Shown here: in pieces, positions 14,899-32,485 of the stretch | How positions within the stretch are numbered: position 1 is the first letter of the stretch | Layout: every line of letters begins with the position of its first letter | Assembly (NCBI GenBank): GCA_964017065.1 | Contig: OZ024784.1 | Location: 17,837,152-17,901,151, forward strand | Direction: 5' to 3' | DNA: 64,000 bases | Origin: Haliclona indistincta | Lineage: Eukaryota > Porifera > Demospongiae > Haplosclerida > Chalinidae | The notes under the pieces: model-generated | Database searches by the model: none | Seen by the model: the letters and a program-made list of their open reading frames with translations, nothing else | Told to the model about the DNA's origin: nothing | Translations under genes and position numbers: made by a program

Positions 14899-17800
14899 AT
14901 GAATCCATGGCTGGTTTGTCTCTTAGCATTACTGCTGAGTGTGGTCCACTCTAACACTGCTGCAGTGGTTCCAGAGACACCTCAAACAGGTAACATAGCT
15001 AGCTACAGACTGTATTTACTGCTGTGGACTTGATATATCTGCAGGTGTGAGAGTCTTCCTACCTTATGAGAATGTTACACTGCCTAACTATGCTGTTATT
15101 CATGCTGGTCAGTTTGATGATGAGGACAGGAATCCACCTGATGGTATTCTTGATCCACTCTGGTGCCAGTCTGCTAACACAGCTGATGATATTGGAGTCT
15201 GGTACAGAGCTGGTGACAATAGAACACTTCCCACAATGCCAGTCGATCCATTGTATGTACAATACTTTCCAGGACAAGTAGGCATCTATAGAACTACTGG
15301 AATTGGTAGCTTTGAAGGAATATATCAGTGTGATATGCCAGATGAGAACTGGATCAATCACACATTGTTTGTGGGTGTGTACAGAACTGGAACATACAAT
15401 GAACTTAGTAAGTGATTCGTGGCCAATACATAGTGTGTTATTAGTGTCTGCTGCTCTTGTACAGCTGGTCCAATGCTGGATCCCAGCATGCAGTTCTCCC
15501 TGGTCTCATCAAGAGAAGCTGACCCTCCTGTGTTCATACTATCATTCAACTCCACCCAGGGACCACCCACTGAAGTGAACTGCACTGTGGACGGAGACCC
15601 AGTGACTGTTCCAGAACAGGACTTGTCTCGGCTGGTGAGACAATTCACCATTCCATCAGTGGTAGAGATCGGAGTGACAGTGAGACAGAGAAGAGGAGGG
15701 ACATACAACTGTACAGTGATCATGAAGGGAGTCAATGAGAACAGTACATTCTTCACCATTGGTAGCAACTCAACTACTACCAGTGTTGCAGGTAAACCAG
15801 TTTTCACACTAGCATTATTCATAATATCATTTCTATCAAAATTGTGTAGTTTCGGCTGTTCCAGTTGACATTACAGCTCAAAGAACCGGCATCTCTACTA
15901 TTCTTCTCTCTTGGTCTAATTCTGGTGCACCAGTAGTTGGATATGAAGTGTTCACAACAGCAAGCAATGGACAGACACTAAGCAACATTACCACACAAGC
16001 ATCACTCACCTTCACTGACATCTCTTCAACGCTAAATTACTCTTTCTTCGTTGTTGCTTTCGGAGAAGGCAATACACTACCTAGTGCACACAGTACTGTA
16101 GTCGAAATCGACTATCCAGGTTAGCTCACAATATGATAAAGAGTGCCTTTCACGTTCACAATATTCTTTTGCAGTCACCATGATGGTAACACTCTCTAAC
16201 GATGTACAGTCTCTGGTTGTTGCTGGCAGCTCATACAATGCTAGCTGCAGTGTAGTTCTCAATGTACCTGTCACTCAGCTCAGATTGGTTTGGACTCATG
16301 TTACTAGTGGAGCCGAAGTAGCCAGCACAATGATCTTCAATGGGACAGAAAATCAGACAAGCTCTGAGTTGGTATTGGATTTCGCAGCAATATCTATATC
16401 AAACACTGGACAGTACACCTGCACTGCTGTAGCTGAAGACAATGCTGGAGTGTCTATTAGTAGAAATGAATCATTGACAATAGATGTGCAGCGTAAGTTT
16501 TATTGCTCCTTTACCAACTGTGTAATAATTTCTTTGGTAATCTGCAGTACCAGAGCCAGTAGTTGTATTGACCGACAGCCCAACTGGTAGACATATCGAG
16601 GGAACTAACCTGACTCTAACTTGCTCCATTAATATCAGTGAACCAGATATTCACTCTCTAACAGTTAACTGGTATTCATCAACATCTGGTCCCATTACAC
16701 AGAACACCAGTCGAGTCACACTCACTCCACCAACTGAGCAGACAGCTGGCGTCTTCATAAGCGCTTTATCAATCGTTCCTCTCACATCAGTCGAAGACAA
16801 TCAAACTGAGTTCACATGTAGCTTCATAATGCTGACAACCTCTAACACTGCTCTGAATTTCTCAGTCAATGACAGCCTCACATTAACAGTGGAAGGTATT
16901 AGACTAGACAATTAGACTTACAAATGTTATGACAACCTATTATTTTATTTTTACAGCTCTACCCACTCCAGATACAATTATTTCAGCAGGCGCTCTGCCC
17001 GTGCTGGGGCAACCATACATTATAACTTGCTTAGCTGTCATTGATCAGGAGGTGTCTGCTGGACTGAGCTTAGCACTCATAGACCAAAGAAATGGTTTGA
17101 TAATTGCTTCAACCATTCAGACTGAAACAACACCCATGTCTGGTAGTTCTCAAACGACATCAGGCACAGCATTTTTCTTTCAGTCACTTGACGAGTCTTT
17201 TCAAGGCAACTACACGTGTGTGTCCAGTGTCAGCTTACCAGGGTTGCCCACTACTACAGAGAGCAATGCGACACACTCGCTCACTCCTGTTACACTAAGT
17301 AAGTACAGTATCTATAGTCACAGTTATTACAATGACATCTCTGATTTTCACTAGACAATCCGATAATTGACATTGGAACAACAGGACTTCCAATAGTGGG
17401 GCAGAACTATTCCTTTGTTTGCAGAGCAACTGCTGATGTGATTTTAAACACTCCACCAGCTGCAACATGGTTGTCACCTGATGGCAGTGACTTGCAGGCT
17501 ACATTTACACAAGGGATCACAGTGTCTTATGTACAGCAAGGCTATACAACCATTGTCTCTTTGAACTTTCATCCACTGGGCCTGCGCAATGCAGGAGACT
17601 ATGAGTGTGTGTCTAGCTTGCAAGAAACTGGTTTTCTAGGTACTAACAGACAATCAACACTTCTCACAGTGCAAGGTATGACGACTCGGTAATTTCCAAT
17701 GAATAAATTATGCTTCTCGTACAGTGCCATCTCCTTCAGTTAGCATATTTCATGATGGTGGTGACTCGCTCTATTCAGGCACCTCTCTTACTCTGACTTG

Positions 17801-29800: not shown

Positions 29801-32485
29801 ACCATCGCAGGACTAACACCATTCTCAAGCTACGTATGCAACTTGTCCGCTGTAAACGAAATCGGGCAAGGACCCTCAACGCAATGCTTCTTCACAACCG
29901 AACAAGACAGTAAGATACATACGAAATTTATGCATTGCAAATCATTTTTTTCTTTCAGTTCCTGCAGATTCACCAAGGAATGTGTCACTGTTAGCATCAT
30001 CCCCATTCTCTCTTATGATCACCTGGGAGCCTCCTACTGTTCCTAATGGTGTTATCCTGAGTTATGCTGTCACTGTCAGTTTGGTGAACACCAGTCAGCA
30101 GCTTTTTAACCTAACAGCGCGAGGTCCCACAGCCGGAGATGGATTTTTGATCAGCAACTTACGCCCCTATCAGACAGTGACCATTGGTGTTGCTGCCAGC
30201 ACATCCATCGGTACTGGACCAAGCGCTTTCTTAACAGCTACCACAGAGGAGTATGGTAATATTTATTCACACCTTTTTTAACTTCTTGTGAATATTTTTT
30301 CTATTACAGCTCCCGGTGTTATTTCGTCCTTGATTGTCGCGGTGGTTAATACCAGCCGAGTCAATGTCACATGGCCACCAGTTCCTCTAGACCGAGCTAA
30401 CGGTGTGATCAGACTGTACACATACTCCCTCAGTGAGTTTGAAGGTGCTTTACTGACCAATGGTTCCCTCAACACTACTGAGACACTGGAAGCAAGCTTC
30501 TCTGGACTCCGTAAGTAGAATGAAAACAAGCGTCGTCACTTTCAATTTTTATTTAGAGGGCTTGACACCCTATGTGGTGACAGTGATAGCGCTAAATGGG
30601 TCACCTCAACCAAGTGAACCAAGAACTGAAATATTCTTCACTGAGGAAGGAAGTGAGTAGAGAATAGTCTCTCTGAAACCTTACAATTTTCTGCTTCTTC
30701 CTCCAGCTCCTCCCTCTCCAATGAATGTATCAACACAAAGACTCAATGGTACTCACATGAGCATCAGTTGGAGTCCAATACCACTGACCCAGAGCAGAGG
30801 ATTCATCACTAACTACACATGCACCTACCAGAGAGTCAGTCGGGTATCCAAGAGACAGACACTGACAGTGAGTGTACCGAGCAGTGCCAGCAGTATAGTG
30901 ATAGGAGGACTGGACCCAGCATCAGCCTATACTGTCAGTGTGGGCGCTACTACTGCAGCTGGTGTTGGTATGACTAGCCCCCCATCAGTGACTCCAGGTA
31001 TGATGATGCTGTCGTATTGAAAGACAGAGGTTCATTTGTGATTCATAGCACAATCATCGACACTGTTTCAAATACGAGGAATAGGCGTTGATGACTGCAA
31101 TGGATGGAGTGTGAGTTGCAATAATAGTCAATCACTCTCACAGTTAATTTATTTGTCGTCATTTTCAGGACTCGGTAATTTCTCAAGTGACTGCTTTTGT
31201 GACATCCACACTCGTCAGTGAAATCAGTCGTCGTTGTAGTTGTCCATTTCCTATAACATTCATCAGTCAAGAACAAGTATTCTGTGATCGGCAGATACCA
31301 ACCGAGTTTGTCTACAGAGCTACCATATTTAGCTACAGCACCTACTCCACTGACCATCTCCTGGAGTTCATACAAGAATGGACCTCATCACAATCTGCTG
31401 TACTGTTCGTAGACAAAGAATTGACCTTTGACCCCAAATGCCCGTTAAATATATCATCCAGTAACGACCAGCTCTGCATGACTACAACGCCAGGCGCTGG
31501 ACTCTCATTTGCTTCCACCGTTGGTATAGCACTCGGATGCATTTTCGGAGGACTGCTAATTATCGTCTTGACCATCATCTTAGCACTAATGGGTCACAAA
31601 CTGTACATTCGGAGGCACAGCAGGTTGGTTTAAAATAAAGTGGTGCTACATGTAACATTTTCATTCAATTTTTATGCAGAAAGAGCTCACAGTGGTCATC
31701 TATTAGCCGACTAACTGAAGTACAAAATTAGTAAGTATTTGTGTGAAAATTTTGTTCAACAATAAGCTGTGCCTGTATTCAACAGCCCATATCAGTTGTA
31801 TTTGCTGGATGGAGCAGTTGATCATGCTGCTGCTGCTATCAGTGATCAACAGATGGTGACGCACTTTGTAAATGAAGAAGCAAAAAGAGCTGAAGCAGAA
31901 GAAAATGAACAACAAGCAAATCAAGAAGAAGAGGACCAAAGAGACAGTGAACATGAAAGCAACAGCGAGCAAGGTGAAGAAGAAGTTGAAGTTCACCAGG
32001 CAAGTAGTGAAAATCAAGGCGATCATGATGAACAAGACGATCAAGATGAGAATCAAACTGAAAATCAAGATAACCAAAGAGGCAGTGAACATGGAAGCAA
32101 CGAAGAAGAGCAACAATCAGAAGAGAGTGAAAGTGAAGAAAATGGAGAAGATGATGGAAGAAGATTTATTCTCTCTCTTTTTGATGACGAGGAGAATACA
32201 AATGAAACTAGCGAACAGCCTCAAGAATTGTTGGTTATTGAAAATCAGGGCCGTAAAGAAGAAGAGGGTGTGGATGAAACAGCAGAAGATGAGGATAATG
32301 ATGAAAATAGTGGAAGTGAAGAAAGTGAAAGAGAGGAGGAAGACAATCGATCACAGCAGACGCTGGTAGACGAAAAAGAGTCTGAATTTGGAAACGAGGA
32401 GAAAATTCCGGTGGAGAGCACTGACGATGATAATTGGGAGACAGAAGAGGAAATAGTAGAAATAGCTGATTTTCTTGATAGTTAA
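20893..32485 (+). CDS. Ig/FN3 single-pass receptor 2, with expanded Ig array and acidic tail
   Basis: Thirty-one in-phase exons give about 3226 residues. Signal peptide exon 20893-20989; two N-terminal Ig-like modules (21045-21407, 21465-21791); FN3 (21839-22117); seventeen Ig-like exons from 22163-22468 to 28876-29208; five FN3 domains (29258-29569, 29625-29909, 29959-30255, 30310-30510 with 30557-30652, 30707-30997); juxtamembrane domain and TM helix (31049-31110, 31169-31623); tail exons 31680-31730 and 31786-32485. From the second Ig exon of the array on, two Ig types alternate. The exon at 28340-28816 carries an extra Ser/Gly-rich linker. The cytoplasmic tail is about 250 residues, nearly all Glu/Asp/Gln/Asn after YPYQLYLLDG, with no kinase. 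Paralogue of receptor 1 with a much longer array. Ligand and partners are unknown. Confidence 0.88.
23299..23431 (+). repeat. (CT)n microsatellite in receptor 2 intron
   Basis: About 65 CT dinucleotides end a few bases before the acceptor at 23438, so the repeat serves as, or extends, the polypyrimidine tract of this 169-bp intron. Confidence 0.95.
28140..28282 (+). repeat. GACA-rich minisatellite in receptor 2 intron
   Basis: CAGACAGACAGCTAGGTACTAATGTGA (about 27 bp; written here only as a description of the unit) occurs about three times, flanked by simple GACA tracts. It lies in the intron 28083-28339 and lengthens it relative to its neighbours. Confidence 0.85.

What the first reader, a model, noticed from the sequence alone, without database searches (positions are those of the whole stretch)
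14899..30997. Twin receptors with homogenised ends and different middles
Bases 15045-15778 and 21045-21778 differ at only three positions in 734 bp, including an identical 57-bp intron, while sequence immediately outside both edges is unrelated. A second block, 19191-19450 and 30707-30966 (the last FN3 exon), differs at only about four positions. The Ig exons between differ in number (6 against 17) and sequence. Recent gene conversion or selection keeping the end modules alike while the middle diversifies would give this pattern, as seen at recognition loci. The exact 6000-bp offset of the first block is probably chance.
Basis: partly seen in the sequence, partly recalled or inferred. Interest (0 to 1): 0.75.

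Follow-up and report, generated by a model that had tools for sequence, protein, structure and literature searches.

The report
Sponge receptor pair sharing copied segments
Two neighbouring receptor genes, probably from a sponge, separated long ago but share two nearly identical stretches, most likely because one gene recently copied them from the other, much as some human immune receptor pairs do.

Summary
Window 15043-15778 and 21043-21778 differ at 3 of 736 bases, including an identical 57-bp intron; 19178-19447 and 30694-30963 differ at 4 of 270. Similarity drops sharply at every edge. Gene A (6 central Ig exons) and gene B (17) are collinear receptor genes with unlike tails. Silent sites are near saturation between A and B in the 14 other exon pairings compared (pS 0.67-0.80) but almost unchanged inside the blocks. 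A third collinear gene on another contig is about equally distant from A and B. Best explanation: recent local gene conversion between anciently duplicated neighbours. Selection on the protein alone is excluded by silent and intron identity; an assembly artefact is unlikely but untested by reads. In another array of the same superfamily (C2:1.47-1.51 Mb, plus one gene on C3) the N2 exon is homogenised at silent sites while the adjoining intron is mostly no more alike than shuffled sequence, so exon-sized exchange seems to recur. A paired-receptor function, like Siglec-11/16, is only inferred. A neighbouring sirtuin groups with demosponges; the species is not identified. Polymorphism, expression and ligands are unknown.

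The parts
14899..20383 (+). Gene A: predicted receptor, SP-N1-N2-FN3-6 Ig-3 FN3-juxtamembrane domain-TM-short tail (SP, TM and some FN3 assigned by eye)
   Evidence: gene model; Pfam ig/fn3
20893..32485 (+). Gene B: predicted receptor, SP-N1-N2-FN3-17 Ig-5 FN3-juxtamembrane domain-TM-long acidic tail (most domains assigned by eye and by likeness to A)
   Evidence: gene model; Pfam fn3 for the last FN3
15043..15778 (+). Block 1 in gene A (exon N1, 57-bp intron, most of exon N2)
   Evidence: 3 mismatches to 21043-21778
21043..21778 (+). Block 1 in gene B
19178..19447 (+). Block 2 in gene A (13 bp of intron plus most of the last FN3 exon)
   Evidence: 4 mismatches to 30694-30963
30694..30963 (+). 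Block 2 in gene B
16175..18435 (+). Gene A: 6 Ig exons, silent sites near saturation against the B exons compared
22163..29208 (+). Gene B: 17 Ig exons of two alternating types (mean score 79-95 at even lags, 30-42 at odd lags, lags 1-8)
16670..16786 (+). Possible older exchange inside Ig2 (77% to 22642-22758; 15 of 38 third positions differ)
19657..20150 (+). Gene A juxtamembrane domain and TM exon
   Evidence: 46% to B
20296..20383 (+). Gene A probable tail exon (29 aa with the split codon); inferred splice
31169..31623 (+). Gene B juxtamembrane domain and TM exon; no Pfam match at E 0.001
31680..32485 (+). Gene B cytoplasmic exons, acidic tail of about 250 aa

Best explanation
A and B are an old tandem pair of IgSF/FN3 receptor genes, probably of a demosponge. 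Recently, DNA was copied between them by non-allelic homologous recombination resolved as gene conversion, in at least two tracts: the N-terminal N1-intron-N2 head and the last FN3 before the juxtamembrane domain. Because N1-N2 occupies the same place in two paralogues on C8, the event most likely replaced an existing homologous head rather than inserting a new one. Shown: position, near-identity including intron and silent sites, near-saturated divergence elsewhere, collinearity with a third gene. Inferred: conversion rather than another copying route; direction unknown. Function, inferred only (about 0.3): paired receptors keeping the same outer head, hence probably the same ligand, on stalks of different length and with different tails; the equally plausible null is a by-product of proximity and residual homology.
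For: Silent differences (NG86): N1 1.0 of 78.7 sites; N2 2.0 of 80.2; last FN3 6.5 of 68.5 including the diverged end past the break; the 14 other exon pairings of the 17 compared have pS 0.67-0.80. Within block 1 only 1 of 224 third positions differs, and the 57-bp intron is identical. Third collinear gene C at C8:11.20 Mb: amino-acid identity A-B/A-C/B-C is FN3a 36/35/37, Fc1 40/38/38, juxtamembrane-TM 46/31/35, but N1 100/35/35, N2 94/47/48, last FN3 95/47/51. Internal contrast: exon Fc2 is 71% identical in protein but pS 0.72, which is what constraint without exchange looks like. No third close copy of either block found. The block mismatch rates (3/734, 4/270) are not significantly different (Fisher p 0.09). 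The head sits at the same place in two C8 genes.
Against: GC3 is not raised in the block exons (A 0.41 vs 0.39, p 0.40; B 0.42 vs 0.42, p 1.0), so there is no sign of long repeated GC-biased conversion. One assembly only; no reads, haplotypes or second individual. Direction could not be polarised because the outgroups are too distant. No expression, ligand or polymorphism data support a function.
Confidence: 0.83

Rival explanations
1. Purifying selection keeps the end modules alike, with no DNA exchange.
For: Both modules are coding domains shared across a large family.
Against: Silent sites and a 57-bp intron are nearly or fully identical, whereas N1 and N2 of A differ at 65-78% of silent sites from the 9 other members compared, so these exons do not hold silent sites fixed.
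Confidence: 0.02
2. Assembly artefact: one block is a misplaced copy of the other.
For: Only one assembly; the exact 6000-bp offset looks odd; GC3 shows no bias.
Against: Two separate blocks; three of four edges lie at or within 13 bp of an exon-intron junction, and frames and splice sites are intact on both sides; 7 differences between the copies; repeats of 0.7 kb are easily spanned by long reads (general knowledge; the read type of this assembly is unknown to me).
Confidence: 0.05
3. One gene gained the head by a recent partial duplication or exon insertion rather than by replacement of an existing head.
For: Exon-sized block with unrelated flanking introns.
Against: Two C8 paralogues carry N1-N2 in the same place, before an FN3-like exon; no duplicated flank is seen; the second block needs a second event.
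Confidence: 0.08
4. Copying through a spliced cDNA intermediate.
For: In the C2 array, homogenised N2 exons sit beside introns no more alike than shuffles in 20 of 22 pairs.
Against: For A and B the intron was copied too, so the template was DNA or unspliced RNA.
Confidence: 0.02

Closest known systems
[quoted passage not shown]
   Same: Neighbouring IgSF receptor genes (about 9 kb apart there; block 1 copies 6 kb apart here); gene conversion over the N-terminal exons; tails that differ.
   Different: There shared cells and glycan binding were established and the signals oppose; here none of that is known, and a second converted block lies near the membrane.
CEACAM1-related family (PMC7042247, abstract and passages seen; PMC5112662, start of abstract in listing)
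   Same: Concerted evolution of N-domain exons; likeness of CEACAM1 to 33 and 35 highest in exons; paired receptors with opposing tails.
   Different: Mammalian family with defined ITIM/ITAM-like tails; here A has a very short tail and B a long acidic one.
Clustered protocadherins of fugu (PMC1852091, abstract and passages seen)
   Same: Regional conversion homogenises one part of the variable exons (over 99% identity) while another part stays divergent.
   Different: Homogenised part is the 3' region of large exons and GC3 is raised; here both ends of a split gene and no GC3 rise.
Hydractinia Alr allorecognition genes (features from recall; one search was a listing only)
   Same: Clustered invertebrate IgSF receptors with variable ectodomains.
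   Different: No polymorphism or fusion phenotype is known for A and B.

Membership tests
IgSF/FN3 single-pass receptor | Ig and FN3 domains in the ectodomain | tested here: met
   Pfam Ig_2, ig, Ig_3 and fn3 above cut-off in the A stretches; fn3 in the B stretch submitted, which held only the C-terminal part of B
IgSF/FN3 single-pass receptor | Signal peptide and one TM segment | tested here: inconclusive
   Hydrophobic stretches by eye in the models; no dedicated predictor available
Gene-converted paralogue pair | Low silent and intron divergence inside sharp tracts, high outside | tested here: met
Gene-converted paralogue pair | Raised GC3 in repeatedly converted tracts (supporting sign used in PMC1852091, not a requirement for a single event) | tested here: not met
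Paired receptors (Siglec-11/16 type) | Adjacent genes with near-identical outermost domains | tested here: met
   N1 120 of 120, N2 102 of 108 residues
Paired receptors (Siglec-11/16 type) | Opposing signalling motifs in the tails | tested here: inconclusive
   Tails differ greatly; looked at by eye only, no motif search run
Paired receptors (Siglec-11/16 type) | Same ligand and same cells | not testable with these tools
   no expression or binding data
Allorecognition locus (Alr type) | High allelic polymorphism linked to fusion or rejection | not testable with these tools
   single assembly

The most novel reading that the evidence does not exclude
Exon-sized gene conversion is the standing engine of a very large sponge recognition-receptor superfamily: it keeps N-terminal head exons circulating among receptors with different stalks and tails, across clusters and even chromosomes, giving sponges matched receptor sets that serve self/non-self or microbial recognition.
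Probability: 0.15. Interest if true: 0.8.

Novelty: new variant of a known kind. Interest (0 to 1): 0.55.

Why it matters
The genes behind sponge self/non-self recognition are, to my knowledge, not settled. This gives a concrete, clustered receptor superfamily (57 N1-like and 141 N2-like exon matches in one genome; lower bounds by the tool's own statement) with direct marks of sequence exchange, and a testable pair in which one outer head sits on two very different stalks and tails. If the paired-receptor reading holds, head homogenisation with tail divergence would exist far outside vertebrates, by convergence.

Tried and rejected
Selection alone was rejected on silent and intron identity. 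A spliced retrocopy as the source of block 1 was rejected because the intron is included. Conversion from a third locus was rejected because no third close copy was found. GC3 as a mark of repeated conversion was negative. AlphaFold2 of N1 without an alignment gave mean pLDDT 43 and was not used. Protein searches with gene A found one fish contactin-like match and none for the N1-N2 part, so neither the species nor relatives elsewhere were found that way. A neighbouring SIRT6-like protein matched an unnamed record at 86%, Amphimedon at 55%, Dysidea at 54% and molluscs at 43-56% among the 120 listed, so identity alone does not decide; in a tree of 17 chosen records it groups with the 86% record, then Amphimedon (support 0.94), then Dysidea (0.94), though the glass sponge Oopsacas fell among molluscs. 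Hence 'probably demosponge, not Amphimedon'. Ten literature searches showed no title or abstract on this receptor family or on gene conversion in sponge IgSF genes; they list at most 20 rows each (one search matched 735 papers, 243), so this is not proof of absence. Passages were seen in PMC5450542, PMC7042247, PMC1852091, PMC5701461 and PMC8242945; no paper was read whole.
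Full report
What is there. The window is C2:17837152-17901151 of a 144-Mb, 46-contig genome. A SIRT6-like neighbour at 49880-51157 is 86% identical to an unnamed record, 55% to Amphimedon and 54% to Dysidea, and in a tree of 17 chosen records it groups with these two demosponges (supports 0.94 and 0.94). The species is not identified. Two genes lie head to tail on the + strand. Gene models were built with a splice-aware script and then adjusted by hand for phase and open frame: A runs from 14899 to 20383 (the tail exon is inferred), B from 20893 to 32485. 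Both read as signal peptide, N1, N2, FN3, an Ig series, FN3 modules, a cysteine-containing juxtamembrane domain, one TM and a tail; signal peptide, TM and part of the domains are by eye. Pfam recognises Ig and FN3 in the stretches submitted, and no listed match has its best stretch over N1 or N2; the juxtamembrane-TM exon of B has no match at E 0.001. A has 6 central Ig exons, B 17. B's Ig exons alternate between two types (mean alignment score 79-95 at even lags, 30-42 at odd lags, lags 1-8), so B probably grew by duplication of a two-exon unit.

The blocks. Block 1 is 15043-15778 / 21043-21778 with 3 mismatches; block 2 is 19178-19447 / 30694-30963 with 4. The left edge of block 1 is the acceptor AG of N1; the right edge is 13 bases before the end of exon N2. 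Block 2 begins 13 bases upstream of its exon and ends 37 (A) or 34 (B) bases before that exon ends. Ungapped identity over 100 bp outside the four edges is 0.34, 0.35, 0.34 and 0.27; upstream of block 2, however, a weaker gapped homology continues into the preceding exon Fc2. Of the three changes in block 1 one is silent (15148) and two alter residues (15642 Gln/Arg, 15708 Asn/Ser); the last takes away an Asn-Cys-Thr pattern in B, by eye.

Silent-site test. Of 17 exon pairings compared, 3 (N1, N2, last FN3) have pS 0.013, 0.025 and 0.095, the last two including the diverged ends past the break; the other 14 have pS 0.67-0.80. Five of those 14 pair middle Ig exons whose order does not define homologues, and two A exons are used twice; FN3a, Ig1, Ig2, Ig3, Fb, Fc1, Fc2, the joining exon and the juxtamembrane-TM exon are positional counterparts. 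The signal-peptide exon was not tested. Exon Fc2 is a useful contrast: 71% identical in protein yet pS 0.72. A 117-bp piece of Ig2 (16670-16786 / 22642-22758; 15 of 38 third positions differ) may be an older tract; this is weak.

Outgroup. A third gene with the same order of parts (5 Ig, exon limits by eye) lies at C8:11.20 Mb (L060), and a short member (N1-N2-FN3-juxtamembrane-TM-tyrosine-rich tail, no Ig middle) at C8:12.42 Mb (L059). Protein identities A-B, A-C, B-C: N1 100/35/35, N2 94/47/48, FN3a 36/35/37, Ig1 24/27/18, Ig2 45/25/25, Fc1 40/38/38, Fc2 71/48/48, last FN3 95/47/51, juxtamembrane-TM 46/31/35. Apart from the blocks, A and B are thus old paralogues, clearly closer to each other than to C in Ig2, Fc2 and the juxtamembrane-TM exon only. 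Since N1-N2 sits in the same place in all four genes, block 1 most likely replaced an existing head.

Mechanism. Non-allelic gene conversion between neighbours (copies of block 1 6.0 kb apart, of block 2 11.5 kb apart) explains all of this. Shown: the identity pattern and its sharp limits. Inferred: the copying route, the number of events (two tracts; mismatch rates not significantly different, p 0.09) and the direction (not polarised). Against long repeated conversion: GC3 is not raised. A single recent episode is therefore favoured over steady homogenisation for this pair. No date is given because no rate is known.

Is it a wider habit? N1-like exons: 57 matches from 62 scored candidates. 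N2-like exons: 141 matches among 150 scored of 168 candidates. The juxtamembrane-TM module is rare: 11 matches, 3 of them pieces of A and B. Thirty N1 loci with flanks were in hand, A and B included and some overlapping. Twenty-six had both exons usable (L022, L031 and L033 dropped for partial N1 matches, L037 for no N2), giving 325 pairs; A-B had the lowest N1 silent divergence of all. Discordance between N1 and N2 runs both ways there: in some C8 pairs N1 is the more alike (L017-L032: pS 0.08 against 0.27), in the C2 array N2. In the array C2:1.47-1.51 Mb and one gene on C3, nine loci were aligned (36 pairs): N1 87-94%, N2 92-98%, the intron between them 39-62% in 33 pairs and 98, 98 and 77% in three. 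For eight of the nine (28 pairs; L015 left out because its N2 frame is shifted; read straight on it gave N2 pS of about 0.31-0.33 in the pairs listed), N2 pS was under 0.1 in 22, and in 20 of those 22 the intron was no more alike than the best of 20 shuffles that kept its ends; the other two introns were 98% alike. The 6 pairs above 0.1 all involve L027 (0.12-0.14). N1 in the same 28 pairs had pS 0.06-0.22. Controls: N1 and N2 of A against these eight and the C8:12.42-Mb gene have pS 0.65-0.78, so silent sites of these exons are free to diverge. Exon-bounded homogenisation, including between contigs C2 and C3, thus seems to recur in the family; fast intron turnover is an alternative for part of that pattern and was not excluded.

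How it may work. The outer head N1-N2 is the natural candidate for ligand binding (inference by analogy with N-terminal domains of Siglecs and CEACAMs). A and B would then be two receptors for one ligand with reach set by 6 or 17 Ig domains and with different outputs: A's tail exon gives 29 residues in the most likely splice form, B's tail is acidic and about 250 residues long. I put this at about 0.3; the null is that conversion is a by-product of proximity. The vertebrate cases show that the first is possible (PMC5701461, PMC7042247; abstracts and passages seen) and that regional conversion within an adhesion ectodomain occurs (PMC1852091; abstract and passages seen). A paper on graft responses in Amphimedon (PMC5450542; [quoted passage not shown] its main text has no word beginning with immunoglobulin, fibronectin or receptor. 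A Halichondria paper (PMC8242945; passages seen) mentions sponge TLR-like receptors with extracellular Ig domains and a TIR domain, which A and B do not resemble in their tails, by eye.

Verdict. Observation confirmed; conversion supported; selection for likeness and recognition function untested. A known evolutionary mechanism, in a receptor superfamily that I found no description of in the listed rows of ten literature searches.

Noticed in passing
G000 C2:1474812-1512816 and C3:16247187-16247942 (loci L012-L016, L018, L019, L021, L027): Array of N1-N2 genes in which the N2 exon is nearly identical at silent sites between most genes while the adjacent short intron looks unrelated; exon-bounded homogenisation, also between C2 and C3.
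   Followed up: partly
Intron between N1 and N2 in L014 and L019, and in L013 and L016 (loci on the minus strand read as reverse complement): Introns come in discrete types: two gene pairs share a 98% identical intron although their N1 exons are only 90 and 94% alike, a fine mosaic.
   Followed up: partly
L015, N2 exon: The N2 reading frame shifts after about 42 residues while the DNA stays 92-97% like its neighbours; possible pseudogene.
   Followed up: partly
22163-29208: The 17 Ig exons of B alternate between two types, suggesting growth by a two-exon unit.
   Followed up: partly
1451-9345: Two single-exon reading frames of 1264 and 1258 codons on the minus strand, 79% alike over 2.5 kb, with a repeat of about 0.95 kb at 290-1253, 4247-5222 and 8341-9276; the first frame has no Pfam match, the second was not scanned.
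   Followed up: partly
53018-55936: NACHT-domain reading frame followed in the same frame, after one stop, by a second long frame without Pfam match; a protein kinase lies on the other strand at 55994-56785.
   Followed up: no
23301-23436 and 46135-46503: Long CT repeats, the first inside the intron between Ig3 and Ig4 of gene B.
   Followed up: no
33712-34183 and 37087-41602: Clusters of direct repeats (most 93-96% alike), including arrays with a step of about 38 bp judged from the offsets.
   Followed up: no
L059 4640-5510: Short family member on C8 with a long tail rich in repeated Tyr motifs (such as TYTTV, by eye), unlike the tails of A and B.
   Followed up: no
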